DNA from: Xestospongia muta
Lineage: Eukaryota; Porifera; Demospongiae; Haplosclerida; Petrosiidae
Length of the DNA: 64,000 nt
Direction of reading: 5' to 3'
Assembly (NCBI GenBank): GCA_963693285.1
Contig: OY848921.1
Span: forward strand, 3,839,497-3,903,496
The translations under genes were made by a program, and so were the position numbers. Each line of letters begins with the position of its first letter. Within the stretch, counting starts at the first letter, position 1. Below, in pieces: positions 9,021-62,851 of this stretch. The notes under the pieces were generated by a model. That model was given only the letters and a program-made list of their open reading frames with translations, did not search any database and had not been told where the DNA came from.

Positions 9021-9272
9021 ATGAGTAAGAGAAAGACTTCTCCTTTTATTGAAGGCTTCTTTCCTAGCAAGCAATATCGGGAAGATGATTCGAGTAACTT
9101 CCAAAGAGAAAATTCAGACTCAGAGAACGAGTTTGTTGAGATATCAGAACCTGATTCAAGTAACTCTCAAAGAGAAAATCCAGACTCAGAGAATGAGTTT
9201 GTTGAGATGTCAGAGTCTGATTCAAGTAACTCCCAAACAGAAACTTCAGAGCCAGAGGAGTCAGATCCTGAG
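9021..9272 (+). CDS. Exon 1: acidic, serine-rich N-terminus with 22-residue repeats
   Basis: ATG at 9021. It encodes a basic start (MSKRKTSPF), then two full copies and one partial copy of a 22-residue unit beginning DSSN (residues 23, 45 and 67; 66-base DNA period from 9087). The unit is rich in S-D/E-x-E sites suited to casein-kinase-2 phosphorylation, and is probably disordered. It ends DPE with donor GTTTGT at 9273, phase 0. Confidence 0.75.
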
Positions 9273-12200
9273 GTTTGTATAGACTAGATACTTTTCATTG
9301 TACACTTAAGTACTTACCCATTAATATTATGACATTAGAAAACATCCACAGAAACACCAAAGTTCTCCATAATTGTAGATTGTTTATTTAATTACTTAGT
9401 ATTAAAAATACTGTTTTAGACACTGTGTTTTACCATTTGATGACAGTAACTTCTAGCAGTTAACATTTAGTTAGCAGTAAGTTACCAGACTACCAGTAAA
9501 TGTTATATGATACCAATATGTACCAGTAGTATATGATACCACTGAATACCTGTATTTAACAGTATGCGTACTTGTATAGTGTTGTACTATCATGATATTA
9601 AGGGGAGGGGAATATTTAGGAAAACTGCTTAAGATCAAATTTGATTTAGCACAGAATCATGTAGAGTCAATTATATTGACTTCAATTTATGAATAAAGTC
9701 ATTATCACATTACAACATAGCTTATTACTTATTTCACTCTTCATCATGTCTAAAGATCTCTCAGTCATAGTAGATTTATCAAGTGCTACTAAAGAGGCAG
9801 TATGATTATTTGACTATATAAATATAAATATACAATCAATAAATTGGTTACAATATATTGGTGCATTCTATCTTTGTGTATACTACTGTGTAGGGATTAT
9901 GTAACTGCTGTAAGACTTAAAACATTGACTCTGATTAATTTGTGGGTGGGGTCTATCTGTAGTGTAGTCCTTCATAACTAGTGATGTTAGTACTTACTAT
10001 TATTTTCAAATCATATATGGGATGGCAATGTTAGTCTGATACATTTACAAAATATTTTTTTGTGATGTGTGTATATCAAAGGTACTACTTGTACTATTAT
10101 TGTCATACATGTGGTTCTAATAATGTACTATTTTAAAAATAAACTGTGTACTATTTTTTATATATAAATTACATATTTTTTATATTTATTATAAGAGATG
10201 AAGTAGTTTGCATTAGGCCTGACATTTAATATTAAGTTGGAATTATTCTCAATTTATAACTATCTAATGGATCTTTTTGACATTGTAGTCAAGTATTTTA
10301 TTACTAAATATTTTGCAAGCAATTGAACGGAAGAAATATTTTTTGTGTGAATTTTTAGACTGCAAGATATCATTTAATGAAATTGACTAGCAAATTCTAT
10401 TCATAATTTATTTATTAATGGTAAACTGATCATACAATAAATAATAATTTTTTTACTATAGAATTATAATCTAGTTGAATTAATTAAAAAAGGTGACTTG
10501 TTGGGAGTTAAAGATGTTCTTTTAAGAGTAGGTGATGTAAATACTAGTGATCATGTAAGTTAATTATGTACATTTAAATTTATGCTACATAAACAAAACT
10601 GAATGTCTACAATTTTAGTTGCTATCTGTTATCTATGTGATACTATTGTGTTACATTATTAAACAAGGAAACTGTTTGATAAAGACATTATTAGATATTT
10701 GTTACTTTATTGTTAGTATTTAATGATATTTTACAATTTACAGTTTGTTTGTTTTACAATAGGACGGATGGACGGATGGAACTTTGTGTGTTTAGTTACT
10801 TCAGTTTGAAAGATGTCCTTTACGTAGTCCAGATATAGTCATGATTTTTATCATGTTGTTTTTAAGTATTATCTTAAAAATATAAAAGCTGGTAAATGTG
10901 ATATAATGTAGTATAATTTCTAACGTTATATAGTACAGTGTTGACATTTTATTTAATTTTTATTCAATAGTTAAGAGATAACTTAACATAAAGAGTTATA
11001 TGTTCCTAGGTCCTAGGTATGGTGGTTTGATAGTATAGACCTAATTCCAAATAATTTTATGTTTGTGTCTTGTTAAACAGTCTGCTTTTTACACTACATG
11101 TACCATACATTTATAATATTATTATTATGTACACTATGTATGACTGTAGTATGTTTATCATGACAAAGTGGACAGATAGAAACAGTTTATTGTGATCAGA
11201 ATATGTTTATACAATTAGTTTAGACGTTAGTAATGATATTTTACAATTTACAGTTTGTTTGTTTTACAATAGATTGGATGGACAGCCCTTCATTATGCAA
11301 GTGATAAAGGACATGTACATGTTGTTGAAGTATTAGTTAACCATGGAGCTGATATCAATGTTGTTACTAAGGTAATTCAGTTAGTGTATTTTACACTGTA
11401 GTTCTTAATTTTTTGGTTTTGTTCATGAATGTTTGTAATCTATTTTAATCTGTGTACCACTACAATGTTCCATACTGAACGTTGTCTGTTCAGTTACTTC
11501 ATTTGAAAAATGTCCTTTACATAGTCCAGATCGTGGTGATTTTCATCTTGTTGTCTTTACATAGTATCTTAAGGAAAACGTTATTTATCTTTCAAGGGCC
11601 ATTTTAGTTGAATTTAACCAGTTTGATGTAATGAAGCAGGGAGAAAACACTCTAGAAAAGTGTTCAACACAAACACTTAATTAATAATGCTGTGCTTGAT
11701 CATGGACACTTGTTTACTTTTTTACTACCAAAAGCATAATAACTTCCATTTTCTAGTATGATTTTAGTCTTTAAGCACAAGCACTGAACCTTTTTTAGCA
11801 TAATGTTTACAGGTCTTCAAAGCATTAGAAAAAGTGCTTTAGTTAGCTAAACTGTAAAAACTCTTGAGTGTTGGTGCCATCTTGTTAGAGAATGTAATAT
11901 AATAATGTCTAAATGTATAAGATTTGTCTGTAGTACTTTTATTTAATTTATGTTTTATTTTACTCTATGTTTATGGTGCTGTGATTTCTTGTCATCTTAA
12001 TGTGTCCTTTAAAATATAATAGTCGGTAAGTGTGATATAATGTAGTATAATTTCTAAGATTATGTAGTTCAATATTGTCATTTTATTTACTACATTATTG
12101 TTATTTCTCTACATTTATGGTGCTATGAATACTTATGATCTGATGTGTCGTTCAAAATATAATAGTTTGTAAGTGTGATATAATGTAGTATAATTTCTAG

Positions 12201-15200
12201 GTTTATATAGTACAGTGTTGTCATTTTATTTATTACTTTATTGTTTATTTCTCTACATTTACGGTGCTATGAAAACTTATAATGTAAGTACTATAATGTA
12301 GTATAATGAAGCAGGGCGAAGACACTTTAGAAAAGTGTTCAACACAAACACTTAATTAATAATGCTGTGCTTGATCACGGACACTTGTTTACTTTTTACT
12401 ACTAAGAACATAATAACTTCAATCTTCTAGTATGATTTTAGTCTTTAAGCACAAACACTGAACCTTTTTTAGCATAATGTTTACAGGTCTTCAAAGCATT
12501 AGAAAAAGTGCTTTAGTTAGCTAAACTGTAAAAACTCTTGAGTGTTGGTGCCATCTTGTTAGAGAATGTAATATAATAATGTCTAAATGTATAACATTTG
12601 TCTGTAGTACTTTTATTTAATTTATGTTTTATTTTACTCTATGTTTATGGTGCTGTGATTACTTGTCATCTTAATGTGTCCTTTAAAATATTATAGTCGG
12701 TAAGTGTGATATAATAGTATAATTTCTAAGATTATGTAGTTCAATATTGTCATTTTATTTACTACATTATTGTTTTTTCTCTATATTTACGCTGCTATGA
12801 AAACTTATTATCTTGATGTGTCCTTTAAAATATAATAGCCAGTAAGTGTGATATACTGTAGTATAATTTCTAAGATTATGTAGTTAAATGTTGTCATTTT
12901 ATTTACTACATTATTGTTTATTTCTCTACATTTACGGTGCTATGAATACTTATGATCTTGATGTGTCCTTCAAAATATAATAGCCGGTAAGTGTGATATA
13001 ATGTAGTATAATATCTAAGTTTATATAGTACAATGTTGTCATTTTATTTATTACATTATATTTTTTTTCTACATTTATGGTGCTATGAATACTTATGATC
13101 TTGATGTGTCCTTCAAAATATAATAGCCGGTAAGTTTGATATAATGTAGTATAATTTCTAAGTTTATATAGTACAGTGTTGTCATTTTATTTATTACATT
13201 ATATTTTTTTTTCTACATTTATGGTGCTATGAATACTTATGATCTTGATGTGTCCTTCAAAATATAATAGCCGGTAAGTTTGATATATTGTAGTATAATT
13301 TCTAAGTTTATATAGTACAGTGTTGTCATTTTATTCATTACATTATTTTTTTTTTTCTACATTTATAATGCTATGAATACTTATGATCTTGATGTGTCCT
13401 TCAAAATATAATAGCCGGTAAGTTTGATATAATGTAGTATAATTTCTAAGTTTATATAGTACAGTGTTGTCATTTTTTACTATATTATTGTTTTTTTCTC
13501 TACATTTATGGTGCTCTGAATACTTATGATCTTGATGTGTCGTTCAAAATATAATAGCCGGTAAGTGTGATATAATGTAGTATAATTTCTAGGTTTATAT
13601 AGTACAATGTTATCATTTTATTTATTACATTATTGTTTTTTCTCTATCTTTACGGTGTTATGAATGTTATGATCTTGATGTGTCCTTCAAAATATAATAG
13701 TTTGTAAGTGTGATATAATGTAGTATAATTTCTAAGTTTATATAGTACAGTGTTGTCATTTTATTTATTACTTTATTGTTTATTTCTCTACATTTACGGT
13801 GCTATGAAAACTTATGATCTTGATGTGTCCTTCAAAATATAATAGTCGGTAAGTGTGATATAATGTAGTATAATTTCTAAGTTTATATAGTACAGTGTTG
13901 TCATTTTATTTATTACATTATATTTTTTTTTCTACATTTATGGTGCTATTAATACTTATGATCTTGATGTGTCCTTCAAAATATAATAGCCGGTAAGTTT
14001 GATATAATGTAGTATAATTTCTAAGTTTATATAGTACAGTGTTGTCATTTTATTTATTACATTATTGTTTTTTCTCTATCTTTACGGTGTTATGAATGTT
14101 ATAATCTTGATGTGTCCTTCAAAATATAATAGTTTGTAAGTGTGATATAATGTAGTATAATTTCTAAGTTTATATAGTACAGTGTTGTCATTTTATTTAT
14201 TACTTTATTGTTTATTTCTCTACATTTACGGTGCTATGAAAACTTATGATCTTGATGTGTCCTTCAAAATATAATAGTCGGTAAGTGTGATATAATGTAG
14301 TATAATTTCTAAGTTTATATAGTACAGTGTTGTCATTTTATTTATTACATTATATTTTTTTTTCTACATTTATGGTGCTATTAATACTTATGATCTTGAT
14401 GTGTCCTTCAAAATATAATAGCCGGTAAGTTTGATATAATGTAGTATAATTTCTAAGTTTATATAGTACAGTGTTGTCATTTTATTTATTACATTATTGT
14501 TTTTTCTCTACATTTACGGTGCTATGAATGTTATGATCTTGATGTGTCCTTCAAAATATAATAGTCGGTAAGTGTGATATAATGTAGTATAATTTCTAAG
14601 TTTATATAGTACAGTGTTGTCATTTTATTTATTACTTTATTGTTTATTTCTCTACATTTACGGTGCTATGAAAACTTATGATCTTGATGTGTCCTTCAAA
14701 ATATAATAGTCGGTAAGTGTAATATAATGTAGTATAATATCAAAGTTTATATAGTACAATGTTGTTATTTTATTTATTACATTATTGTTTTTTCTCTACA
14801 TTTACTGTGCTATGAATACTTATGATCTTGATGTGTCCTTCAAAATATAATAGCTGGTAAGTGTGATATAATGTAGTATAATATCTAAGTTTATATAGTA
14901 CAATGTTGTCATTTTATTTATTACATTATATTTTTTTTTCTACATTTATGGTGCTATGAATACTTATGATCTTAATGTGTCCTTCAAAATATAATAGCCG
15001 GTAAGTTTGATATAATGTAGTATAATATCTAAGTTTATATAGTACAATGTTGTCATTTTATTTATTACATTATATTTTTTTTTCTACATTTATCGTGCTA
15101 TGAATACTTATGATCTTGATGTGTCCTTCAAAATATAATAGCCGGTAAGTTTGATATAATGTAGTATAATTTCTAAGTTTATATAGTACAGTGTTGTCAT

Positions 15201-18200
15201 TTTATTTATTACATTATTGTTTTTTCTCTACATTTACGGTGCTATGAATACTTATGATCTTGATGTGTCCTTCAAAATATAATAGTCGGTAAGTGTGATA
15301 TAATGTAGTATAATTTCTAAGTTTATATAGTAGAGTGTTGTCATTTTATTTATTACATTATTGTTTTTTCTCTACCTTTACGGTGCTATGAATACTTATG
15401 ATCTTGATGTGTCCTTCAAAATATAATAGTCGGTAAGTGTGATATAATGTAGTATAATATCTAAGTTTATATAGTACAATGTTGTCATTTTATTTATTAC
15501 ATTATATTTTTTTTTCTACATTTATGGTGCTATGAATACTTATGATCTTGATGTGTCCTTCAAAATATAATAGTCGGTAAGTTTGATATAATGTAGTATA
15601 ATATCTAAGTTTATATAGTACAGTGTTGTCATTTTATTTATTACATTATATTTTTTTTTCTACATTTATGGTGCTATGAATACTTATGATCTTGATGTGT
15701 CCTTCAAAATATAATAGCCGGTAAGTTTGATATAATGTAGTAAAATTTCTAAGTTTATATAGTACAGTGTTGTCATTTTATTTATTACTTTATTGTTTAC
15801 TTCTCTACATTTACGGTGCTATGAAAACTTATGATCTTGATGTGTCCTTCGAAATATAATAGTCAGTAAGTGTAATATAATGTAGTATAATATCTAAGTT
15901 TATATAGTACAATGTTGTTATTTTATTTATTACATTATTGTTTTTTCTCTACATTTACTGTGCTATGAATACTTATGATCTTGATGTGTCCTTCAAAATA
16001 TAATAGCCGGTAAGTGTGATATAATGTAGTATAATATCTAAGTTTATATAGTACAATGTTGTCATTTTATTTATTACATTATATTTTTTTTTCTACATTT
16101 ATGGTGCTATGAATACTTATGATCTTGATGTGTCCTTCAAAATATAATAGCCGGTAAGTTTGATATAATGTAGTATAATATCTAAGTTTATATAGTACAG
16201 TGTTGTCATTTTATTTATTACATTATATTTTTTTTTCTACATTTATGGTGCTATGAATACTTATGATCTTGATGTGTCCTTCAAAATATAATAGCCGGTA
16301 AGTTTGATATAATGTAGTATAATTTCTAAGTTTATATAGTACAGTGTTGTCATTTTATTTATTACATTATTGTTTTTTCTCTACATTTATGGTGCTATGA
16401 ATACTTATGATCTTGATGTGTCCTTCAAAATATAATAGCCGGTAAGTGTGATATAATGTAGTATAATATCTAAGTTTATATAGTACAATGTTGTCATTTT
16501 ATTTATTACATTATATTTTTTTTTCTACATTTATGGTGCTATGAATACTTATGATCTTGATGTGTCCTTCAAAATATAATAGCCGGTAAGTTTGATATAA
16601 TGTAGTATAATATCTAAGTTTATATAGTACAATGTTGTCATTTTATTTATTACATTATATTTTTTTTTCTACATTTATCGTGCTATGAATACTTATGATC
16701 TTGATGTGTCCTTCAAAATATAATAGCCGGTAAGTTTGATATAATGTAGTATAATTTCTAAGTTTATATAGTACAGTGTTGTCATTTTATTTATTACATT
16801 ATTGTTTTTTCTCTACATTTACGGTGCTATGAATACTTATGATCTTGATGTGTCCTTCAAAATATAATAGTCGGTAAGTGTGATATAATGTAGTATAATT
16901 TCTAAGTTTATATAGTAGAGTGTTGTCATTTTATTTATTACATTATTGTTTTTTCTCTACCTTTACGGTGCTATGAATACTTATGATCTTGATGTGTCCT
17001 TCAAAATATAATAGTCGGTAAGTGTGATATAATGTAGTATAATATCTAAGTTTATATAGTACAATGTTGTCATTTTATTTATTACATTATATTTTTTTTT
17101 CTACATTTATGGTGCTATGAATACTTATGATCTTGATGTGTCCTTCAAAATATAATAGCCGGTAAGTTTGATATAATGTAGTATAATATCTAAGTTTATA
17201 TAGTACAGTGTTGTCATTTTATTTATTACATTATATTTTTTTTTCTACATTTATGGTGCTATGAATACTTATGATCTTGATGTGTCCTTCAAAATATAAT
17301 AGCCGGTAAGTTTGATATAATGTAGTAAAATTTCTAAGTTTATATAGTACAGTGTTGTCATTTTATTTATTACTTTATTGTTTACTTCTCTACATTTACG
17401 GTGCTATGAAAACTTATGATCTTGATGTGTCCTTCGAAATATAATAGTCAGTAAGTGTAATATAATGTAGTATAATATCTAAGTTTATATAGTACAATGT
17501 TGTTATTTTATTTATTACATTATTGTTTTTTCTCTACATTTACTGTGCTATGAATACTTATGATCTTGATGTGTCCTTCAAAATATAATAGCCGGTAAGT
17601 GTGATATAATGTAGTATAATATCTAAGTTTATATAGTACAGTGTTGTCATTTTATTTATTACATTATATTTTTTTTTCTACATTTATCGTGCTATGAATA
17701 CTTATGATCTTGATGTGTCCTTCAAAATATAATAGCCGGTAAGTTTGATATAATGTAGTATAATTTCTAAGTTTATATAGTACAGTGTTGTCATTTTATT
17801 TATTACATTATTGTTTTTTCTCTACATTTATGGTGCTATGAATACTTATGATCTTGATGTGTCCTTCAAAATATAATAGCCGGTAAGTGTGATATAATGT
17901 AGTATAATATCTAAGTTTATATAGTACAATGTTGTCATTTTATTTATTACATTATATTTTTTTTTCTACATTTATGGTGCTATGAATACTTATGATCTTG
18001 ATGTGTCCTTCAAAATATAATAGCCGGTAAGTTTGATATAATGTAGTATAATATCTAAGTTTATATAGTACAGTGTTGTCATTTTATTTATTACATTATA
18101 TTTTTTTTTCTACATTTACGGTGCTATGAATACTTATGATCTTGATGTGTCCTTCAAAATATAATAGCCGGTAAGTTTGATATAATGTAGTAAAATTTCT

Positions 18201-21200
18201 AAGTTTATATAGTACAGTGTTGTCATTTTATTTATTACATTATATTTTTTTTCTACATTTATGGTGCTATGAATACTTATGATCTTGATGTGTCCTTCAA
18301 AATATAATAGCTGGTAAGTTTGATATAATGTAGTATAATTTCTAAGTCTATTTAGTAGTATGATGTTGTTATTTTATGTGTTTTAGTATATTTTCCTAAT
18401 TTATGTAAATGTTTTCAGGAAGGATCTACTCCAGTCATGTTAGCAGTAATGAATGGACACAAAGATGTTGTATTGCTTTTAATGCAAAAAGGAGCCAATC
18501 TAGGCCATGTTAACAAAGTAAGTGTTCACATACTTATCTTATATTATGAACTATGTATAACTGAAAGTTAAAAAGCAAGTTATTTGTCCTTAAAAGACTG
18601 TCATTATGTGTTATATAAAGGTTCAATTGTTTTTGATATAATAACGATAATATGATACAAAGGTCTTATCATAATTTGATAAAAATGATAAATGTTCCTT
18701 TCATTACTTGTACATCTATTAGTTTTCAAATTAATGTCACTAGAGACCAAGAGATGATGAAACGTCTTGTTTTTCATAATTGTTTCAATGACCAGTTGAG
18801 GAGCACATATAAATGTAGTAGTAAAGCTTATAATGTAAAGTGATAACTTGTTGAGTTTTAAGTTGTTCTATTGCAATAGAAAATAGAGAAACAGTGTTTG
18901 TCATAGAAACTATAAATATTTGTAATCTACTTCCTATTGTTGAATACCAGTATAGGTATTTGTATGTTGAGGTAATGACTTGTACATAGTATCTGTTTGT
19001 CCATTAATATCTAATGTTGATTATTAATGGACTAGTTTATCTGTTTACTAACTATTGTTTTTACAACAGTTAATGAGATTATTTAAGTCTTGTTTTCCAT
19101 CCTTTTGTCTCATTTGTATGCTTATTGATAAAGTTAACAAGTATACAATTTAAAGGTTGTCATTGTTTATTTTATAAATATAGACAGAAAAGTAACACTA
19201 ATTTATACATGTAATTAACAGACATATATGATGATAGATATTGCAGTGTATTAGTCAATAATATATCAGGAAGTCATCTATATAAAGTACAAAAGTGACA
19301 ATAGTTAACAGATAACTTAACATAAAGAGCTATATGTTCCTAGGTCCTAGGAGTGGTGGTTTGATAGTATAGACCTAATTCCAAATAATTTTATGTTTGT
19401 GTCTTGTTAAACAGTCTGGTTTTTACACTACATGTACCATACATTTATAATATTATTATTATGTACACAATGTATGACTGTAGTATGTTTTACATGACAA
19501 AGTGGACAGATAGAAACAGTTTATTGTGATCAGAATATGTTTATACAATTAGTTTAGACGTTAGTAATGATGTTTTACATTTTACAGTTTGTTTGTTTTA
19601 CAATAGGATGGATGGGCAGCCCTTCATTATGCTAGTGATAAAGGACATGTACATGTTGTTGAAGTATTAGTTAACCATGGAGCTGATATCAATGTTGTTA
19701 CTAAGGTAATTCAGTTAGTGTATTTTACACTGTAGTTCATAATTTTTTGGTTTTGTTCATGAATGTTTGTAATCTATTTTAATCTGTGTACCACTACAAT
19801 GTTCCATATTGAATGTTGTCTGTTCAGTTACTTCATTTTGAAAAATGTCCTTTACATAGTCCAGATAGTCATGATTTTCATCTTGTTGTCTTTACATAGT
19901 ATCTTAAGGAAAACGTTATTTATCTTTCAAGGGCCATTTTAGTTGAATTTAACCAGTTTGATGTAATGAAGCAGGGCGAAGACACTTTAGAAAAGTGTTC
20001 AACACAAACACTTAATTAATAATGCTGTGCTTGATCACAGACACTTGTTTACTTTTTACTACTAAGAACATAATAACTTCAATCTTCTAGTATGATTTTA
20101 GTCTTTAAGCACAAGCACTGAACCTTTTTTAGCATAATGTTTACAGGTCTTCAAAGCATTAGAAAAAGTGCTTTAGTTAGCTAAACTGTAAAAACTCTTG
20201 AGTGTTGGTGCCATCTTGTTAGAGAATGTAATATAATAATGTCTAAATGTATAACATTGTCTGTAGTACTTTTATTTAATTTATGTTTTATTTTACTCTA
20301 TGTTTATGGTGCTGTGATTTCTTGTCATCTTAATGTGTCCTTTAAAATATTATAGTCGGTAAGTGTGATATAATAGTATAATTTCTAAGATTATGTAGTT
20401 CAATATTGTCATTTTATTTACTACATTATTGTTTTTTCTCTATATTTACGCTGCTATGAAAACTTATTATCTTGATGTGTCCTTTAAAATATAATAGCCA
20501 GTAAGTGTGATATACTGTAGTATAATTTCTAAGATTATGTAGTTAAATGTTGTCATTTTATTTACTACATTATTGTTTATTTCTCTACATTTACGGTGCT
20601 ATGAATACTTATGATCTTGATGTGTCCTTCAAAATATAATAGCCGGTAAGTGTGATATAATGTAGTATAATATCTAAGTTTATATAGTACAATGTTGTCA
20701 TTTTATTTATTATATTATATTTTTTTTCTACATTTATGGTGCTATGAATACTTATGATCTTGATGTGTCCTTCAAAATATAATAGCCGGTAAGTTTGATA
20801 TAATGTAGTATAATTTCTAAGTTTATATAGTACAGTGTTGTCATTTTATTCATTACATTATATTTTTTTTCTACATTTATAATGCTATGAATACTTATGA
20901 TCTTGATGTGTCCTTCAAAATATAATAGCCGGTAAGTTTGATATAATGTAGTATAATTTCTAAGTTTATATAGTACAGTGTTGTCATTTTATTCATTACA
21001 TTATATTTTTTTTCTACATTTATAATGCTATGAATACTTATGATCTTGATGTGTCCTTCAAAATATAATAGTTGGTAAGTGTAATATAATGTAGTATAAT
21101 ATCTAAGTTTATATAGTACAATGTTGTCATTTTATTTATTACATTATTGTTTTTTCTCTACATTTACGGTGCTATGAATCTAATGATCTTGATGTGTCCT

Positions 21201-33200: not shown

Positions 33201-36200
33201 GAATACTTATGATCTTGATGTGTCCTTCAAAATATAATAGTTTGTAAGTTTGATATAATGTAGTATAATATCTAAGTTTATATAGTACAGTGTTGTCATT
33301 TTATTTATTACATTATTGTTTTTTCTCTACATTTACGGTGCTATGAATCTTATGATCTTGATGTGTCCTTCAAAATATAATAGTTGGTAAGTGTAATATA
33401 ATGTAGTATAATTTCTAAGTTTATATAGTACAGTGTTGTCATTTTTTACTACATTATTGTTTTTATTCTCTGTATTTATGGTGCTCTGAATACTTATGAT
33501 CTTGATGTGTCCTTCAAAATATAATAGTCAGTAAGTGTGATATAATGTAGTATAATTTCTAAGTTTATATAGTACAGTGTTGTCATTTTATTTATTACAT
33601 TATATTTTTTTACTACATTTATGGTGCTATGAATACTTATGATCTTGATGTGTCCTTCAAAATATAATAGTCGGTAAGTTTGATATAATGTAGTATAATT
33701 TCTAAGTTTATATAGTACAGTGTTGTCATTTTATTTATTACATTATTGTTTTTTCTCTACCTTTACGGTGCTATGAATACTTATGATCTTGATGTGTCCT
33801 TCAAAATATAATAGTCGGTAAGTGTGATATAATGTAGTATAATTTCTAAGTTTATATAGTACAGTGTTGTCATTTTATTTATTACATTATATTTTTTTTC
33901 TACATTTATGGTGCTATGAATACTTATGATCTTGATGTGTCCTTCAAAATATAATAGCCGGTAAGTTTGATATAATGTAGTATAATTTCTAAGTTTATAT
34001 AGTACAGTGTTGTCATTTTATTTATTACATTATTGTTTTTTCTCTACATTTACGGTGCTATGAATGTTATGATCTTGATGTGTCCTTCAAAATATAATAG
34101 TTTGTAAGTGTGATATAATGTAGTATAATTTCTAAGTTTATATAGTACAGTGTTGTCATTTTATTTATTACTTTATTGTTTATTTCTCTACATTTACGGT
34201 GCTATGAAAACTTATGATCTTGATGTGTCCTTCGAAATATAATAGTTGGTAAGTGTAATATAATTGAGTATAATATCTAAGTTTATATAGTACAATGTTG
34301 TTATTTTATTTATTACATTATTGTTTTTTCTCTACATTTACGGTGCTATGAATACTTATGATCTTGATGTGTCCTTCAAAATATAATAGCTGGTAAGTGT
34401 ATAATAATGTAGTATAATATCTAAGTTTATATAGTACAATGTTGTTATTTTATTTATTACATTATTGTTTTTTCTCTACATTTACTGTGCTATGAATACT
34501 TATGATCTTAATGTGTCCTTCAAAATATAATAGCCGGTAAGTGTGATATAATGTAGTATAATATCTAAGTTTATATAGTACAGTGTTGTCATTTTATTTA
34601 TTACATTATATTTTTTTCTCTACATTTATGGTGCTATGAATACTTATGATCTTGATGTGTCCTTCAAAATATAATAGCTGGTAAGTTTGATATAATGTAG
34701 TATAATTTCTAAGTTTATATAGTACAGTGTTGTCATTTTATTTATTACATTATTGTTTTTTCTCTACCTTTACGGTGCTATGAATACTTATGATCTTGAT
34801 GTGTCCTTCAAAATATAATAGTCGGTAAGTGTGATATAATGTAGTATAATTTCTAAGTTTATATAGTACAGTGTTGTCATTTTATTTATTACATTATTGT
34901 TTTTTCTCTACCGTTACGGTGCTATGAATACTTATGATCTTGATGTGTCCTTCAAAATATAATAGTCGGTAAGTGTGATATAATGTAGTATAATATCTAA
35001 GTTTATATAGTACAATGTTGTCATTTTATTTATTACATTATATTTTTTTTCTACATTTATGGTGCTATGAATACTTATGATCTTGATGTGTCCTTCAAAA
35101 TATAATAGCCGGTAAGTTTGATATAATGTAGTATAATTTCTAAGTTTATATAGTACAGTGTTGTCATTTTATTTATTACATTATATTTTTTTTCTACATT
35201 TATGGTGCTATGAATACTTATGATCTTGATGTGTCCTTCAAAATATAATAGCCGGTAAGTTTGATATAATGTAGTATAATTTCTAAGTTTATATAGTACA
35301 GTGTTGTCATTTTATTTATTACATTATATTTTTTTCTCTACATTTATGGTGCTATGAATACTTATGATCTTGATGTGTCCTTCAAAATATAATAGCCGGT
35401 AAGTTTGATATAATGTAGTAAAATTTCTAAGTTTATATAGTACAGTGTTGTCATTTTATTTATTACATTATATTTTTTTTCTACATTTATGGTGCTATGA
35501 ATACTTATGATCTTGATGTGTCCTTCAAAATATAATAGCTGGTAAGTTTGATATAATGTAGTATAATTTCTAAGTTTATATAGTACAATGTTGTCATTTT
35601 ATTTATTACATTATATTTTTTTTTCTACATTTATGGTGCTATGAATACTTATGATCTTGATGTGTCCTTCAAAATATAATAGCCGGTAAGTTTGATATAA
35701 TGTAGTATAATTTCTAAGTCTATTTAGTAGTATGATGTTGTTATTTTATGTGTTTTAGTATATTTTCCTAATTTATGTAAATGTTTTCAGGAAGGATCTA
35801 CTCCAGTCATGTTAGCAGTAAGGAATGGACACAAAGATGTGGTATTGCTTTTAATGCAGAAAGGAGCCAATCTAGGCCATGTTAACAAAGTGAGTGTTCA
35901 CATACTTATCTTATATTATGAACTATGTATAACTGAAAGTTAAAAAGCAAGTTATTTGTCCTTAAAAGACTGTCATTATGTGTTATATAAAGGTTCAATT
36001 GTTTTTGATATAATAACGATAATATGATACAAAGGTCTTATCATAATTTGATAAAAAGCGATAAATGTTCCTTTCATTACTTGTACATCTATTAGTTTTC
36101 AAATTAATGTCACTAGAGACCAAGAGATGATGAAACGTCTTGTTTTTCATAATTGTTTGAATGACCAGTTGAGGAGCACATATAAATGTAGTAGTAAAGC

Positions 36201-39200
36201 TTATAATGTAAAGTGATAACTTGTTGAGTTTTAAGTTGTTCTATTGCAATAGAAAATAGAGAAACAGTGTTTGTCATAGAAACTATAAATATTTGTAATC
36301 TACTTCCTATTGTTGAATATCAGTATAGGTATTTGTATGTTGAGGTAATGACTTGTACATAGTATCTGTTTGTCCATTAATATCTAATGTTGATTATTAA
36401 TGGACTAGTTTATCTGTTTACTAACTATTGTTTTTACAACAGTTAATGAGATTATTTAAGTCTTGTTTTCCATCCTTTTGTCTCATTTGTATGCTTATTG
36501 ATAAAGTTAACAAGTATACAATTTAAAGGTTGTCATTGTTTATTTTATAAATATAGACAGAAAAGTAACACTATTTTATACATGTAATTAACAGACATAT
36601 ATGATGATAGATATTGCAGTGTATTAGTCAATAATATATCAGGAAGTCATCTATATAAAGTACAAAAGTGACAATAGTTAACAGATAACTTAACATAAAG
36701 AGCTATATGTTCCTAGGTCCTAGGAGTGGTGGTTTGATAGTATAGACCTAATTCCAAATAATTTTATGTTTGTGTCTTGTTAAACAGTCTGGTTTTTACA
36801 CTACAAGTACAGTACATTAATAATAATTATTATTATTATGTACACAATGTATGACTGTAGTATGTTTTACATGACAAAGTGGACAGATAGAAACAGTTTA
36901 TTATGATCAGTATATGTTTATACAATTAGTTTAGACTTTAGTAATGATGTTTTACAATTTACAGTTTGTTTGTTTTACAATAGGATGGATGGACAGCCCT
37001 TCATTATGCAAGTGATAAAGGACATGTACATGTGGTTGAAGTATTAGTTAACCATGTAGCTGATATCAATGTTGTTACTAAGGTAATTCAGTTAGTGTAT
37101 TTTACACTGTAGTTCATAATTTTTTGGTTTTGTTCATGAATGTTTGTAATCTATTTTAATCTGTGTACCACTACAATGTTCCATACTGAACTTTGTGTGT
37201 TCAGTTACTTCATTTGAAAAATGTCCTTTACATAGTCCAGATAGTCATGATTTTCATCTTGTTGTCTTTACATAGTATCTTAAGGAAAACGTTATTTATC
37301 TTTCAAGGGCCATTTTAGTTGAATTTAACCAGTTTGATGTAATGAAGCAGGGCAAAGACACTTTAGAAAAGTGTTCAACACAAACACTTAATTAATAATG
37401 CTGTGCTTGATCATGGACACTTGTTTACTTTTTACTACTAAGAACATAATAACTTCAATCTTCTAGTATGATTTTAGTTTTAAGCACAAACACTGAGCCC
37501 TTTATAGCATAATGTTTACAGGTCTTCAAAGCATTAGAAAAAGTGCTTTAGTTAGCTAAACTGTAAAAACTCTTGAGTGTTGGTGCCATCTTGTTAGAGA
37601 ATGTAATATAATAATGTCTAAATGTATAACAATTGTCTGTAATACTTTTATTTAATTTATGTTTTATTTTACTCTCCGTTTATGGTGCTGTGATTACTTG
37701 TTATCTTAATGTGTCCTTTAAAATATAATAGTCGGTAAGTGTGATATAATAGTATAATTTGTAAGATTATGTAGTTCAATGTTGTCATTTTATTTACTAC
37801 ATTATTGTTTTTACTGTATATTTACGATGCTATGAATACTTATGATCTTGATGTGTCCTTCAAAATATAATAGTCGGTAAGTGTGATATAATGTAGTATA
37901 ATTTCTAAGTTTATATAGTAGTGTTGTCATTTTTTACTACATTATTGTTTTTTTCTCTACATTTATGGTGCTATGAATACTTATGATCTTGATGTGTCCT
38001 TCAAAATATAATAGTCGGTAAGTGTGATATAATAGTATAATTTCTAAGTTTATATAGTACAGTGTTGTCATTTTATTTACTACATTATTGTTTTTTTTCT
38101 CTACATTTATGGTGCTATGAATACTTATGATCTTGATGTGTCCTTCAAAATATAATAGCCAGTAAGTTTAATATAATGTAGTATAATTTCTAAGTCTATT
38201 TAGTAGTATGATGTTGTTATTTTATGTGTTTTGGTATATTTTCCTAATACATGTAAATGTATTATCTTAATGTTTTCAGGAAGGATCTACTCCAGTCATG
38301 TTAGCAGTAAGGAATGGACACAAAGATGTGGTATTGCTTTTAATGCAGAAAGGAGCCAATCTAGACCATGTTAACAAAGTAAGTGTTCACATACTTATCT
38401 TATATTATGAACTATGTATAACTGAAAGTTAAAAAGCAAGTTATTTGTCCTTAAAAGACTGTCATTATGTGTTATATAAAGGTTCAATTATTTTTGATAT
38501 AATAACGATAATATGATACAAAGGTCTTATATTTGATAAAAAGCGATAAATGTTCCTTTCATTACTTGTACATCTATTAGTTTTCAAATTAATGTCACTA
38601 GAGACCAAGAGATGATGAAACGTCTTGTTTTTCATAATTGTTTGAATGACCAGTTGAGGAGCACATATAAATGTAGTAGTAAAGCTTATAATGTAAAGTG
38701 ATAACTTGTTGAGTTTTAAGTTGTTCTATTGCAATAGAAAATAGAGAAACAGTGTTTGTCATAGAAACTATAAATATTTGTAATCTACTTCCTATTGTTG
38801 AATACCAGTATAGGTATTTGTATGTTGAGGTAATGACTTGTACATAGTATCTGTTTGTCCATTAATATCTAATGTTGATTATTAATGGACTAGTTTATCT
38901 GTTTACTAACTATTGTTTTTACAACAGTTAATGATATTATTTAAGTCTTGTTTTCCATCCTTTTATCTCATTTGTATGCTTATTGATAAAGTTAACAAGT
39001 ATACAATTTAAAGGTTGTCATTGTTTATTTTATAAATATAGACAGAAAAGTAACACTATTTTATTACATGTAATTAACAAACATATATGATGATAGATAT
39101 TGCAGTGTATTAGTCAATAATATATCAGGAAGTCATCTATATAAAGTACAAAAGTGACAATAGTTAACAGATAACTTAACATAAAGAGCTATATGTTCCT

Positions 39201-42200
39201 AGGTCCTAGGAGTGGTGGTTTGATAGTATAGACCTAATTCCAAATAATTTTATGTTTGTGTCTTGTTAAACAGTCTGGTTTTTACACTACATGTACCATA
39301 CATTTATAATATTATTATTATGTACACAATGTATGACTGTAGTATGTTTTACATGACAAAGTGGACAGATAGAAACAGTTTATTGTGATCAGAATATGTT
39401 TATACAATTAGTTTAGACGTTAGTAATGATGTTTTACAATTTACAGTTTGTTTGTTTTACAATAGGATGGATGGACAGCCCTTCATTATGCAAGTTATAA
39501 AGGACATGTACATGTTGTTGAAGTATTAGTTAACCATGTAGCTGATATCAATGTTGTTACTAAGGTAATTCAGTTAGTGTTTTTAACACTGTAGTTCATA
39601 ATTTTTTGGTTTTGTTCATGAATGTTTGTAATCTATTTTAATCTGTGTACCACTACAATGTTCCATACTGAACGTTGTCTGTTCATTTACTTCATTTTGA
39701 AAAATGTCCTTTACATAGTCCAGATAGTCATGATTTTCATCTTGTTGTCTTTACATAGTATCTTAAGGAAAACGTTAATTATCTTTCAAGGGCCATTTTA
39801 GTTGAATTTAACCAGTTTGATGTAATGAAGCAGGGCAAAGACACTTTAGAAAAGTGTTCAACACAAACACTTAATTAATAATGCTGTGCTTGATCACGGA
39901 CACTTGTTTACTTTTTACTACTAAGAACATAATAACTTCAATCTTCTAGTATGATTTTAGTCTTTAAGCACAAGCACTGAACGTTTTTAGCATAATGTTT
40001 ACAGGTCTTCAAAGCATTAGAAAAAGTGCTTTAGTTAGCTAAACTGTAAAAACTCTTGAGTGTTGGTGCCATCTTGTTAGAGAATGTAATATAATAATGT
40101 CTAAATGTATAACATTGTCTGTAGTACTTTTATTTAATTTATGTTTTATTTTACTCTATGTTTATGGTGCTGTGATTACTTGTCATCTTAATGTGTCCTT
40201 TAAAATATTATAGTCGGTAAGTGTGATATAATAGTATAATTTCTAAGATTATGTAGTTCAATATTGTCATTTTATTTACTACATTATTGTTTTTTCTCTA
40301 TATTTACGCTGCTATGAAAACTTATTATCTTGATGTGTCCTTTAAAATATAATAGTCGGTAAGTGTGATATACTGTAGTATAATTTCTAAGATTATGTAG
40401 TTAAATGTTGTCATTTTATTTACTACATTATTGTTTATTTCTCTACATTTACGGTGCTATGAATACTTATGATCTTGATGTGTCCTTCAAAATATAATAG
40501 TCGGTAAGTGTGATATAATGTAGTATAATATCTAAGTTTATATAGTACAATGTTGTCATTTTATTTATTACATTATATTTTTTTTCTACATTTATGGTGC
40601 TATGAATACTTATGATCTTGATGTGTCCTTCAAAATATAATAGCCGGTAAGTTTGATATAATGTAGTATAATTTCTAAGTTTATATAGTACAGTGTTGTC
40701 ATTTTATTTATTACATTATATTTTTTTTTCTACATTTACGGTGCTATGAATACTTATGATCTTGATGTGTCCTTCAAAATATAATAGGGGGTAAGTTTGA
40801 TATATTGTAGTATAATTTCTAAGTTTATATAGTACAGTGTTGTCATTTTATTCATTACATTATATTTTTTTTTCTACATTTATAATGCTATGAATACTTA
40901 TGATCTTGATGTGTCCTTCAAAATATAATAGTTGGTAAGTGTAATATAATGTAGTATAATTTCTAAGTTTATATAGTAGTGTTGTCATTTTTTACTACAT
41001 TATTGTTTTTTTTCTCTGTATTTATGGTGCTATGAATACTTATGATCTTGATGTGTCCTTCAAAATATAATAGTTTGTAAGTTTGATATAATGTAGTATA
41101 ATTTCTAAGTTTATATAGTACAGTGTTGTCATTTTCTACTATATTATTGTTTTTTTCTCTACATTTATGGTGCTCTGAATACTTATGATCTTGATGTGTA
41201 CTTCAAAATATAATAGTTTGTAAGTGTGATATAATGTAGTATAATTTCTAAGTTTATATAGTACAGTGTTGTCATTTTATTTATTACTTTATTGTTTATT
41301 TCTCTACATTTACGGTGCTATGAAAACTTATGATCTTGATGTGTCCTTCGAAATATAATAGTCGGTAAGTGTAATATAATGTAGTATAATATCTAAGTTT
41401 ATATAGTACAATGTTGTCATTTTATTTATTACATTATTGTATTTTCTCTACATTTACGGTGCTATGAATACTTATGATCTTGATGTGTCCTTCAAAATAT
41501 AATAGCTGGTAAGTGTATAATAATGTAGTATAATATCTAAGTTTATATAGTACAATGTTGTCATTTTATTTATTACATTATTGTTTTTTTCTCTACCTTT
41601 ACGGTGCTATGAATACTTATGATCTTGATGTGTCCTTCAAAATATAATAGTCGGTAAGTGTGATATAATGTAGTATAATATCTAAGTTTATATAGTACAA
41701 TGTTGTCATTTTATTTATTACATTATATTTTTTTTTCTACATTTATGGTGCTATGAATACTTATGATCTTGATGTGTCCTTCAAAATATAATAGCCGGTA
41801 AGTTTGATATAATGTAGTATAATATCTAAGTTTATATAGTACAGTGTTGTCATTTTATTTATTACATTATATTTTTTTTTCTACATTTATGGTGCTATGA
41901 ATACTTATGATCTTGATGTGTCCTTCAAAATATAATAGTTTGTAAGTGTGATATAATGTAGTATAATATCTAAGTTTATATAGTACAATGTTGTCATTTT
42001 ATTTATTACATTATATTTTTTTTCTACATTTATGGTGCTATGAAAACTTATGATCTTGATGTGTCCTTCAAAATATAATAGCCAGTAAGTTTGATATAAT
42101 GTAGTATAATTTCTAAGTTTATATAGTACAGTGTTGTCATTTTATTTATTACATTATATTTTTTTTTCTACATTTATGGTGCTATGAATACTTATGATCT

Positions 42201-45200
42201 TGATGTGTCCTTCAAAATATAATAGTTTGTAAGTGTGATATAATGTAGTATAATATCTAAGTTTATATAGTACAATGTTGTCATTTTATTTATTACATTA
42301 TATTTTTTTCTACATTTATGGTGCTATGAATACTTATGATCTTGATGTGTCCTTCAAAATATAATAGGGGGTAAGTTTGATATAATGTAGTATAATTTCT
42401 AAGTTTATATAGTACAGTGTTGTCATTTTATTTATTACATTATATTTTTTTTTCTACATTTATGGTGCTATGAATACTTATGATCTTGATGTGTCCTTCA
42501 AAATATAATAGCCGGTAAGTTTGATATATTGTAGTGTAATTTCTAAGTTTATATAGTACAGTGTTGTCATTTTATTTATTACATTATATTTTTTTTTCTA
42601 CATTTATAATGCTATGAATACTTATGATCTTGATGTGTCCTTCAAAATATAATAGTTGGTAAGTGTAATATAATGTAGTATAATATCTAAGTTTATATAG
42701 TACAGTGTTGTCATTTTATTTATTACATTATTATTTTTTCTCTACATTTACGGTGCTATGAATCTTATGATCTTGATGTGTCCTTCAAAATATAATAGCC
42801 AGTAAGTTTGATATAATGTAGTATAATTTCTAAGTCTATTTATTAGTATGATGTTGTTATTTTATGTGTTTTGGTATATTTTCCTAATATATGTAAATGT
42901 ATTATCTTAATGTTTTCAGAAAGGATCTACTCCAGTCATGTTAGCAGTAATGAATGGACACAAAGATGTTGTATTGCTTTTAATGCAGAAAGGAGCCAAT
43001 CTAGGCCATGTTAACAAAGTAAGTGTTCACATACTTATCTTATATTATGAACTATGTATAACTGAAAGTTAAAAAGCAAGTTATTTGTCCTTAAAAGACT
43101 GTCATTATGTGTTATATAAAGGTTCAATTATTTTTGATATAATAATGATAATATGATACAAAGGTCTTATCATAATTTGATAAAAAGTGATAAATGTTCC
43201 TTTCATTACTTGTACATCTATTAGTTTTCAAATTAATGTCACTAGAGACCAAGAGATGATGAAACGTCTTGTTTTTCATAATTGTTTGAATGACCAGTTG
43301 AGGAGCACATATAAATGTAGTAGTAAAGCTTATAATGTAAAGTGATAACTTGTTGAGTTTTAAGTTGTTATATTGCAATAGAAAATAGAGAAACAGTGTT
43401 TGTCATAGAAACTATAAATATTTGTAATCTACTTCCTATTGTTGAATACCAGTATAGGTATTTGTATGTTGAGGTAATGACTTGTACATAGTATCTGTTT
43501 GTCCATTAATATCTAATGTTGATTATTAATGGACTAGTTTATCTGTTTACTAACTATTGTTTTTACAACAGTTAATGAGATTATTTAAGTCTTGTTTTCC
43601 ATCCTTTTGTCTCATTTGTATGCTTATTGATAAAGTTAACAAGTATACAATTTAAAGGTTGTCATTGTTTATTTTATAAATATAGACAGAAAAGTAACAC
43701 TATTTTATTACATGTAATTAACAAACATATATGATGATAGATATTGCAGTGTATTAGTCAATAATATATCAGGAAGTCATCTATATAAAGTACAAAAGTG
43801 ACAATAGTTAACAGATAACTTAACATAAAGAGCTATATGTTCCTAGGTCCTAGGAGTGGTGGTTTGATAGTATAGACCTAATTCCAAATAATTTTATGTT
43901 TGTGTCTTGTTAAACAGTCTGGTTTTTACACTACATGTACCATACATTTATAATATTATTATTATGTACACAATGTATGACTGTAGTATGTTTTACATGA
44001 CAAAGTGGACAGATAGAAACAGTTTATTGTGATCAGTATATGTTTATACAATTAGTTTAGACGTTAGTAATGATGTTTTACAATTTACAGTTTGTTTGTT
44101 TTACAATAGGATGGATGGACAGCCCTTCATTATGCAAGTGATAAAGGAGATGTACATGTTGTTGAAGTATTAGTTAACCATGGAGCTGATATCAATGTTG
44201 TTACTAAGGTAATTCAGTTAGTGTATTTTACACTGTAGTTCATAATTTTTTGGTTTTGTTCATGAATGTTTGTAATCTATTTTAATCTGTGTAACATTAC
44301 AATGTTCCATACTGAACATTGTCTGTTCAGTTACTTCATTTTGACAAATGTCCTTTACATAGTCCAGATAGTCATGATTTTCATCTTGTTGTCTTTACAT
44401 AGTATCTTAAGGAAAATGTTATTTATCTTTCAAGGGCCATTTTAGTTCAATTTAACCAGTTTGATGTAATGAAGCAGGGCGAAGACACTTTAGAAAAGTG
44501 TTCAACACAAACACTTAATTAATAATGCTGTGCTTGATCATGGGCACTTGTTTACTTTTTACTACTAAGAACATAATAACTTCAATCTTCTAGTATGATT
44601 TTAGTCTTTAAGCACAAGCACTGAGCCCTTTATAGCATAATGTTTACAGGTCTTCAAAGCATTAGAAAAAAGTGCTTTAGTTAGCTAAACTGTAAAAACT
44701 CTTGAGTGTTGGTGCCATCTTGTTAGAGAATGTAATATAATAATGTCTAAAAGTATAACATTTGTCTGTAGTACTTTTATTTAATTTATGTTTTATTTTA
44801 CTGTATGTTTATGGTGCTGTGATTACTTGTCATCTTAATGTGTCCTTTAAAATAAAATAAAATAAAATGAAACGTCTTGTTTTTCATAATTGTTTCAATG
44901 ACCAGTTGAGGAGCACATATAAATGTAGTAGTAAAGCTTATAATGTAAAGTGATAACTTGTTGAGTTTTAAGTTGTTCTATTGCAATAGAAAATAGAGAA
45001 ACAGTGTTTGTCATAGAAACTATAAATATTTGTAATCTATTTCCTATTGTTGAATAGCAGTATAGGTATTTGTATGTTGAGGTAATGACTTGTACATAGT
45101 ATCTGTTTGTCCATTAATATCTAATGTTGATTATTAATAGACTATTATATCTGTTTACTAACTATTGTTTTTACAACAGTTAATGAGATTATTTAAGTCT

Positions 45201-57504: not shown

Positions 57505-57780
57505 CATTCAACAGGACTGTGTTAATATCAAACATCCTCCCACTTTTAAATGGTATTGTAATACATGCTTAACATCTAAGAAGACAAGACAAAAGTCATC
57601 ATAAGTCTAACATAATTCATACTCGATACAACAATAGGTTCATTAACAGACTTGTCTTGAATTTTCTTCTTAATTATAATATAAAGTAATACATGGTAAT
57701 GAAAATAATCAAATGAATAAAAATTTATGAATATTAAGTAGCTTCATTCTGTGACTAGCCGCTTTGGAATCGTTGCTGAA
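57505..57780 (+). repeat. 5' flank of receptor 1, duplicated at 61410-61711
   Basis: GTGTTAACATCAAACATC through AAGACAAAAGTCATCATAAG (57520-57605) and GTGACTAGCCGCTTTG (57751) recur at about 61425-61510 and 61699. They mark the upstream part of a direct segmental duplication, and probably part of the receptor promoter. Confidence 0.75.
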
Positions 57781-60980: not shown

Positions 60981-61330
<350 letters not shown>

Positions 61331-62830: not shown

Positions 62831-62851
62831 CTTGGATCGTTCCTTATCAAA

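What the first reader, a model, noticed from the sequence alone, without database searches (positions are those of the whole stretch)
11273..44208. Fifteen near-identical symmetric ankyrin exons in an alternating A/B array inside one gene
Eight A and seven B exons, each exactly 99 bases, phase 0, with consensus splice sites and no stop, alternate over 33 kb. Exons and spacers are almost identical, so the expansion is recent or kept uniform by gene conversion. Because every exon is symmetric, any number can be skipped or gained without breaking the frame, so alleles and transcripts could vary in length by whole ankyrin repeats. In a ROC-COR/death-fold protein this would vary the recognition surface, like a tunable sensor.
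Basis: partly seen in the sequence, partly recalled or inferred. Interest (0 to 1): 0.9.

Follow-up and report, generated by a model that had tools for sequence, protein, structure and literature searches.

The report
Ankyrin exon arrays with splice-site minisatellite
In an animal genome, probably a sponge's, a LRRK2-like gene carries 15 nearly identical one-repeat ankyrin exons in strict A/B alternation, and the DNA between each A and the next B holds a tandem repeat whose copies look like one-codon exons, which, if they are spliced in, would be a new way to make variable binding proteins.

Summary
Five neighbouring paralogs have the same design with 2A/1B to 5A/5B. All 47 exons found are intact and all six genes alternate strictly, so the unit gained or lost is an A-B pair, not any single exon. 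A genome search matched at least 64 related ROC-COR exons, its own included; ROC-COR is supported by fold, the C-terminal death fold is not. Two stretches of another contig show the same alternation, so the plan is older than the copies.

Nearly every copy holds AG-NNN-GTAAGT. AG..GT is the best conserved and NNN the most variable part. Genome-wide, 2865 exact cores exist, none with a stop as NNN; other spacings are almost absent. I read them as candidate one-codon, phase-0 microexons. The stop test alone is not unique; no transcript was available.

The parts
9021..9272 (+). first coding exon, acidic/serine-rich N-terminus (84 codons)
   Evidence: paralog copy 90% identical in gene g1
10462..10554 (+). 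N2, first ankyrin-like exon, 93 bp, phase 0
11273..11371 (+). exon A1
12023..18313 (+). 144-bp repeat array in A1-B1 intron; 42 AG-NNN-GTAAGT-type cores (candidate one-codon microexons), first to last NNN
18419..18517 (+). exon B1
19607..19705 (+). exon A2
20356..23375 (+). 144-bp repeat array in A2-B2 intron, 19 cores
23481..23579 (+). exon B2
24623..24721 (+). exon A3
25514..27670 (+). 144-bp repeat array in A3-B3 intron, 14 cores
27776..27874 (+). exon B3
28856..28954 (+). exon A4
29605..30322 (+). 144-bp repeat array in A4-B4 intron, 6 cores
30441..30539 (+). exon B4
31630..31728 (+). exon A5
32379..35685 (+). 144-bp repeat array in A5-B5 intron, 23 cores
35791..35889 (+). exon B5
36984..37082 (+). 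exon A6
37732..38161 (+). 144-bp repeat array in A6-B6 intron, 4 cores
38280..38378 (+). exon B6
39466..39564 (+). exon A7
40214..42801 (+). 144-bp repeat array in A7-B7 intron, 18 cores
42920..43018 (+). exon B7
44110..44208 (+). exon A8 (last of the array; no core follows it)
46093..46191 (+). ank3 exon, 99 bp, phase 0, single
48529..48630 (+). ank4 exon, 102 bp, phase 0
48991..49083 (+). ank5 exon, 93 bp, phase 0
49955..50056 (+). ank6 exon, 102 bp, phase 0
51096..53165 (+). large exon: last ankyrin repeat plus ROC-COR (690 codons)

Best explanation
A real, modular repeat-recognition gene of the ROCO (ROC-COR GTPase) superfamily in an animal, probably a demosponge. Fixed ends (N2; ank3-6 and ROC-COR) enclose an ankyrin solenoid made of A-B dyads of 66 residues, one repeat per phase-0 exon. 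Dyads are gained and lost in frame, most likely by unequal recombination or conversion between the 144-bp minisatellite arrays found in every A-to-B intron read; exchange inside those introns moves whole [B - spacer - A] blocks and so keeps strict alternation. The protein would act as a sensor whose solenoid length and surface differ between paralogs, with ROC-COR as the switch. Shown: anatomy, dyad-wise number differences between six paralogs, homogenised spacers, ROC-COR. Inferred: recombination in the minisatellite, sensing or immune role, the animal's identity. Open and treated in the section on the most novel reading: that each minisatellite copy is also a one-codon exon.
For: Exons and frame. 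Six neighbouring C5 genes: ABABA, ABA, (AB)7A, (AB)5, (AB)3, (AB)4; 47 of 47 found exons intact. Repeat cores lie in 22 of 22 A-to-B introns (2-42 each) and in 0 of 19 B-to-A introns. Alternating A- and B-like exons with a 141-142-bp relative of the repeat between A and B occur in two stretches of C1. B-to-A introns are about 1% apart within the window gene, 2.5% between genes of one clade and 13% between clades. ROC-COR exon under purifying selection, pN/pS 0.31-0.38 in six pairs of four genes. At least 64 ROC-COR exons, the window's own included, at 76% identity or more, 63 of 64 without an internal stop; 64 scored of 480 candidates. Fold match to LRRK1, LRRK2 and Roco.
Against: No reads, transcripts or second individual were available. 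Recombination inside the minisatellite is not shown directly. Within the window gene the array exons show no purifying selection (pN/pS 1.36 for A, 1.01 for B) and vary more than the intron between them (17 of 198 against 27 of 969 sites, Fisher 6e-4); of the four other genes tested none shows this, and g6 shows the reverse. Relaxed constraint would fit too. Variable residues do not clearly concentrate at DARPin-type binding positions: 8 of 26 variable positions by my own numbering, about 5.5 expected (positions; the DARPin numbering is recalled). Only six of the 64 family members were read for their exon array.
Confidence: 0.72

Rival explanations
1. The 144-bp repeat copies are one-codon microexons (or recursive-splice steps that leave one codon behind): A exon, then any number of NNN codons, then B exon, giving a hypervariable loop in the ankyrin finger between A and B.
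For: AG..GT intact in 98.2% of 442 copies, rank 1 of 118 placements (median 73%); GTAAGT rank 1 of 118 hexamers; NNN the most variable 3-column window of 134. No indel in columns 57-74 of 442 copies. Genome-wide 2865 exact cores; NNN = TAA or TGA 0, TAG 0, against TAY 7, TGK 172, VRA 224. Spacing other than 3: 8 copies of 2 nt, all TT; the 8 hits with 4-12 nt all still hold AG-NNN-GTAAGT plus a duplicated GTAAGT piece. In the loci read, only on the coding strand and in A-to-B, not B-to-A, introns. The splice-like ends resemble the true A acceptor (acaatag) and B donor (gtaagtgt).
Against: No transcript. Copies are clonal, so counts are not independent. Absence of stops is not unique: windows at columns 99 and 103 also show none where 6 and 17 were expected, and on trees columns 12, 15 and 17 show no stop-making change where 20, 22 and 2.5 were expected, while 6 stop-making steps are inferred in the NNN tree. 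The 8 copies with broken splice signals had no stop either. Where the 2865 cores lie was checked only in the loci read. Very small exons are thought to hinder spliceosome binding (PMC4674806, passages).
Confidence: 0.42
2. The GTAAGT-bearing repeat is a non-coding element: a decoy or U1-binding array, or a bipartite protein-binding site with a free 3-nt spacer, that regulates or protects long AT-rich introns, and has no coding role.
For: GTAAGT is the best conserved hexamer. AT-rich flanks are conserved too between C1 and C5 (hand count: 4 of 49 core columns differ against 20 of 74 others, Fisher 0.011; borders chosen after the fact).
Against: Does not by itself predict the exact 3-nt distance from a conserved AG, nor the lack of stop triplets.
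Confidence: 0.36
3. The exons are decaying or neutral copies in a long duplication-prone region; the array has no functional meaning and the minisatellite is passive.
For: Within-window pN/pS near or above 1; one paralog's ROC-COR exon has an in-frame TGA and a further ROC-COR copy at C5:3970829-3972448 is fragmented.
Against: 47 of 47 found exons keep length, frame, splice sites and alternation; B exons between clades pN/pS 0.33 and ROC-COR 0.31-0.38; same plan on C1.
Confidence: 0.1
4. Assembly artefact.
For: Near-identical units over 33 kb; no reads seen.
Against: Longest exact repeat 599 bp; seven different A-to-B intron lengths; same design at five other loci on C5 and in two stretches of C1.
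Confidence: 0.03

Closest known systems
Brown algal ROCO genes with LRR exon shuffling (PMC11378527, passages seen; Zambounis 2012 not held, known only through it)
   Same: ROC-COR gene family in which each repeat of the recognition solenoid is its own exon of constant length and phase; proposed immune receptors
   Different: There LRR, 72 bp, phase 2, alternative splicing reported; here ankyrin, 99 bp, phase 0, two alternating exon types, near-identical copies, an animal, and a splice-site-bearing minisatellite between A and B
Human polyubiquitin UBC with a tandem array of dual-specific splice sites (PMC10809524, abstract and one section read)
   Same: Splice-site signals repeated in register with a tandem repeat, so that splicing leaves a variable number of units in frame
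   Different: There AGGT is one shared site and the unit is a 228-nt ubiquitin, with proven transcripts; here AG and GT are 3 nt apart and the unit would be one codon, unproven
Schistosome micro-exon genes (PMC4015677, passages)
   Same: Many small symmetric exons whose use can vary without breaking frame
   Different: There mostly secreted proteins with transcripts and isoforms known; larger microexons and no one-repeat tandem array (these two points recalled)
Recursive splicing ratchet points (PMC8605326, passages) and the single-nucleotide exon of Arabidopsis APC11 (PMC4674806, passages)
   Same: Adjacent acceptor and donor inside a long intron; tiny exons feasible, perhaps by stepwise splicing
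   Different: Ratchet points join AG and GT directly; here three bases lie between; tandem copies in thousands
LRRK1, LRRK2 and bacterial Roco
   Same: ROC-COR fold
   Different: No kinase in the gene model; the solenoid is built of single-repeat ankyrin exons

Membership tests
ROCO (ROC-COR) superfamily | ROC GTPase domain | tested here: met
   Pfam Roc 26.5 bits, E 8e-6, just under cutoff 27; LRRK2 Roc in PDB sequences E 1.5e-4; Foldseek
ROCO (ROC-COR) superfamily | COR domain directly after ROC | tested here: met
   No Pfam COR hit, but the model (mean pLDDT 74.8) matches RocCOR 3dpu, E 6e-17, and COR alone 3dpt, E 2e-9
Exon-shuffled ROCO receptors of brown algae | each solenoid repeat is one exon of fixed length and phase | tested here: met
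   for the A/B exons; ank4-ank6 are 102, 93 and 102 bp
Exon-shuffled ROCO receptors of brown algae | repeats are LRR | tested here: not met
   Ankyrin: Pfam Ank 102 bits for A-B-A
Exon-shuffled ROCO receptors of brown algae | alternative splicing of repeat exons | not testable with these tools
   no transcripts
Exon-shuffled ROCO receptors of brown algae | diversifying selection on repeats | tested here: inconclusive
   excess exon variation in the window gene only, 1 of 5 genes tested
Death-domain signalling proteins | C-terminal death fold | tested here: inconclusive
   0 Pfam families, no convincing PDB sequence relative, low-confidence helical model (65.4) without a significant fold match
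Micro-exon genes | tiny exons bounded by splice signals, length a multiple of 3 | tested here: met
   as sequence candidates only:
Micro-exon genes | microexons present in mRNA | not testable with these tools
   no transcripts; the 120 listed of 4342 proteins found with the array region are 24-41% identical, none a close A/B relative
Recursive splice (ratchet) points | acceptor AG directly joined to donor GT | tested here: not met
   3 nt between AG and GT in 344 of 344 strict cores of the loci held

The most novel reading that the evidence does not exclude
One-codon exons by the hundred, perhaps thousands: each copy of a roughly 133-144 bp minisatellite in the A-to-B introns of an animal ankyrin-ROC-COR family is an exon of exactly three nucleotides (AG|NNN|GTAAGT), hypervariable, stop-free and phase 0. 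Splicing that uses any subset would insert a combinatorial, residue-by-residue variable loop into the ankyrin finger between A and B (up to 126 such codons in the window gene), while germline change of the arrays alters both loop and dyad number. If the 2865 genome-wide cores all lie in such genes this would be a whole repertoire. No such receptor-diversifying system is known to me.
Probability: 0.42. Interest if true: 0.96.

Novelty: new variant of a known kind. Interest (0 to 1): 0.82.

Why it matters
Exon-per-repeat ROCO genes were known to me only from brown algae. Finding the plan in an animal, with ankyrin repeats, in six neighbouring genes and apparently on a second contig, within a family of at least 64 ROC-COR exons, suggests that a ROCO-based recognition repertoire may have arisen more than once. 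If the minisatellite copies are one-codon exons, splicing itself would generate variable loops in a way not described, and near-minimal exons, so far known as single cases, would be the rule in a gene family. Both claims are directly testable by one cDNA experiment.

Tried and rejected
Rejected: a third ankyrin exon in B-to-A introns (GAHINVVVK, e.g. 18800): nine codons with stops in frame on both sides, present in one clade only. Rejected: selection focused on DARPin-like binding positions (positions; not clearly in excess). Read with caution: pN/pS 3.6 of A exons between clades comes from unusually low pS (0.014), not from high pN (0.050, like ROC-COR). The tree of B-to-A introns separates two clades but resolves little within them. 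Variants shared with other genes: 6 of 8 variable A sites, 2 of 9 B sites, 10 of 27 intron sites; conversion between genes neither shown nor excluded. Proteins of other species: of 120 listed ROC-COR relatives (of 403) 3 have two or more 70%-identical repeats at 66-residue offset and 1 at 33, but most are unnamed predicted ORFs and may be biased to intronless genes. The search with the array region returned general ankyrins (120 listed of 4342), so no transcript-derived relative could test the microexons. First frame choice for Pfam was wrong. The stop-avoidance test was strong at first sight (10^-12.5) but the controls show it is not unique; I therefore rest more on position, spacing and conservation.
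Full report
What was checked. The window lies at C5:3839497-3903496 of an unnamed 158-Mb genome in 28 contigs. A spliced model reads from 9021 to 54154 without a stop over 1579 codons: N-terminus, N2, 15 A/B exons, ank3-ank6, one 690-codon exon with ROC-COR, and a helical C-terminus. The model rests on sequence alone; the two small exons placed between 53165 and 53811 are the least certain.

What kind of gene. The large exon scores just under Pfam's cutoff for Roc (26.5 against 27 bits), matches the LRRK2 Roc domain by sequence (E 1.5e-4), and its AlphaFold model (mean pLDDT 74.8, 46 sequences) matches LRRK1 (E 4e-20), LRRK2 (E 1e-19) and Roco RocCOR 3dpu (E 6e-17) in the PDB. The proposed death fold was not confirmed. 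Of the 120 listed of 403 protein relatives, only one bears a name, Amphimedon queenslandica LOC100641765, 38% identical, with ankyrin repeats, weak Roc and a Death domain; the best unnamed ones reach 41-43%. I infer a demosponge other than A. queenslandica. The genome search matched at least 64 such ROC-COR exons, the window's own included, at 76% identity or more, 63 of 64 without a stop; only 64 of 480 candidates were scored.

The array is dyadic. I read C5:3740001-4000000 (window included) and two further stretches of C5 (29 and 26 kb). Exons were found by tblastn (E 1e-3), and hits under 60% identity, which are cross-hits among ankyrin exons, were dropped, so badly decayed exons would be missed. 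Six genes hold 25 A and 22 B exons; 47 of 47 keep length, splice sites and frame. The orders are ABABA, ABA, (AB)7A, (AB)5, (AB)3 and (AB)4, with no A-A or B-B neighbour, which also argues that none was missed inside. In g2 (ABA) no N-terminal or N2 exon was detected. Thus the unit of change is an A-B dyad. On C1 two short stretches show B-A-B-A and B-A-B-A-B orders at 69-85% amino-acid identity; I did not check those exons for intactness, nor read their ROC-COR exons, so their membership is inferred.

Age and selection. B-to-A introns differ by 1.0% within the window gene, 2.5% between genes of one clade (g1-g3; g4-g6) and 12.9% between the two clades. ROC-COR synonymous sites differ by 7-8% among g1-g3 and by 14-16% between these and g4. 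So copies are young or homogenised while the plan is older. ROC-COR is under purifying selection (pN/pS 0.31-0.38). A exons have very few synonymous differences (pS 0.014 between clades) and pN/pS 3.6; B exons 0.33. Within the window gene 17 of 198 exon sites vary against 27 of 969 in the B-to-A intron (Fisher 6e-4), with 13 of 17 nonsynonymous, which by my estimate is about the neutral ratio; of the four other genes tested (g1, g4, g5, g6) none shows such an excess and g6 shows the reverse. I read this as weak evidence of relaxed or diversifying selection. A further oddity: the ROC-COR exon nearest to g6 is only 79% identical to the window's, that nearest to g5 93%, and g4's 90% (the first two are assigned by position only), yet g4-g6 arrays are closest to each other. 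Array and ROC-COR seem to have partly separate histories, as conversion or exchange between genes would give.

The minisatellite. The seven A-to-B introns of the window, 23,976 bp together, carry arrays of a 144-bp repeat, about 19 kb by my sum of the TRF rows. With a tolerant core pattern there are 126 copies in the window, 126 of 126 in A-to-B introns and none on the other strand; over the six genes 346 copies in 22 of 22 A-to-B introns, 2 to 42 each, and 0 in 19 B-to-A introns. In the 260-kb region 183 of 183 strict cores lie inside four genes and on their coding strand (the start of g2 was set by hand). Two C1 pieces hold 24 more, none between B and the next A. Because the repeat sits only between A and B, unequal exchange within it would move whole B-spacer-A blocks, which explains strict alternation. 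This step is inferred.

The core looks like an exon of three bases. Aligning 442 copies (402 from C5, 40 from C1), the AG and GT around NNN are both intact in 98.2%, the highest of 118 same-shaped placements (median 73%); GTAAGT is the best kept of 118 hexamers (97% against a median of 55%); NNN is the most variable of 134 three-column windows, with 19 types among 434 intact copies and no stop. There is no indel in columns 57-74. Genome-wide, TAATAG-NNN-GTAAGTGTGATATAATG occurs 2865 times exactly, its reversed control 0 times. NNN is TAA or TGA 0 times, TAG 0 times, TAC/TAT 7 (all TAT), TGG/TGT 172, and [ACG][AG]A 224. Spacings of 0-2 nt occur 8 times, all TT and 6 of them on C4; of 4-12 nt 8 times, and each of those still contains AG-NNN-GTAAGT followed by a duplicated GTAAGT piece.

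Limits of that reading. Copies are related by tandem amplification, so none of these counts is a set of independent trials; and I know the surroundings of the cores only in the loci read. Two controls weaken the stop argument: by column independence, 3 of 34 windows with at least 3 expected stops have none, NNN (15.9 expected) being one of them; and on per-window trees, of 24 windows with at least 2 expected stop-making changes, columns 12, 15 and 17 show none (20, 22 and 2.5 expected), while the NNN tree implies 6 such steps though no living copy has a stop. The tree-based probability (10^-12.5) should therefore not be taken at face value. The combination of exact 3-nt spacing, top conservation of both splice signals, top variability between them, coding-strand and phase-0 location, and no stop in 2865 copies is what I find hard to explain otherwise. 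I put the chance that these codons reach mRNA at about 0.4.

Compared with what is known. Brown algal ROCO genes encode each LRR by a 72-bp phase-2 exon with shuffling and alternative splicing (PMC11378527, passages). Human UBC has a tandem array of dual-specific splice sites delimiting ubiquitin units (PMC10809524, abstract and one section). Schistosome micro-exon genes use symmetric small exons (PMC4015677, passages). Exons of 3 nt and even 1 nt are reported (PMC4674806, passages), and recursive splicing uses joined acceptor-donor pairs (PMC8605326, passages). My nine paper searches listed no title or abstract start on ankyrin-ROC-COR exon arrays in sponges or on minisatellite-borne microexons; the library is open-licence PMC only, the lists were capped, and I saw listings, not every paper.

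Noticed in passing
57742-58836 and 62807-63904 (+): Two ORFs that look like GPCRs by eye, 89% identical over 351 residues, downstream of the gene.
   Followed up: partly
101-2132 (-): ORFs that look like FN3, Ig and von Willebrand A domains by eye, a neighbouring gene.
   Followed up: no
61029-61315: 84-bp tandem repeat, C2H2 zinc-finger-like on the minus strand by eye.
   Followed up: no
18800 and the same place in other B-to-A introns: Nine-codon ankyrin-like scrap GAHINVVVK with stops around it; an exact 24-mer of it is in 9 of 10 B-to-A introns of g1-g3 and 0 of 9 of g4-g6.
   Followed up: partly
9086-9257: 66-bp coding tandem repeat in the N-terminal exon, Ser/Glu-rich.
   Followed up: no
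C5:3822057-3824126 and C5:3970829-3972448: One paralog's ROC-COR exon has an in-frame TGA; another ROC-COR copy is fragmented.
   Followed up: no
44843-44900: After A8 the A-to-B type intron breaks off at an AAAAT run and goes on as B-to-A type intron, as if a last B had been deleted. g1 and g2 also end in A, but their junctions were not read.
   Followed up: partly
C5:4004587-4006656, C5:4287193-4289262, C5:3926162-3928231: ROC-COR exons 93%, 79% and 90% identical to the window's lie next to arrays (g5, g6, g4) that are closest to each other: array and ROC-COR histories seem to differ.
   Followed up: no
C14, C11 and C5:1.41-1.76 Mb of G000: Long single-exon ankyrin ORFs (up to 4111 codons), a second gene design in the same genome.
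   Followed up: no
C4 of G000 (6 places): Repeat cores with a 2-nt instead of 3-nt gap, 6 of 8 on C4; possibly a dead or non-coding offshoot of the repeat.
   Followed up: no
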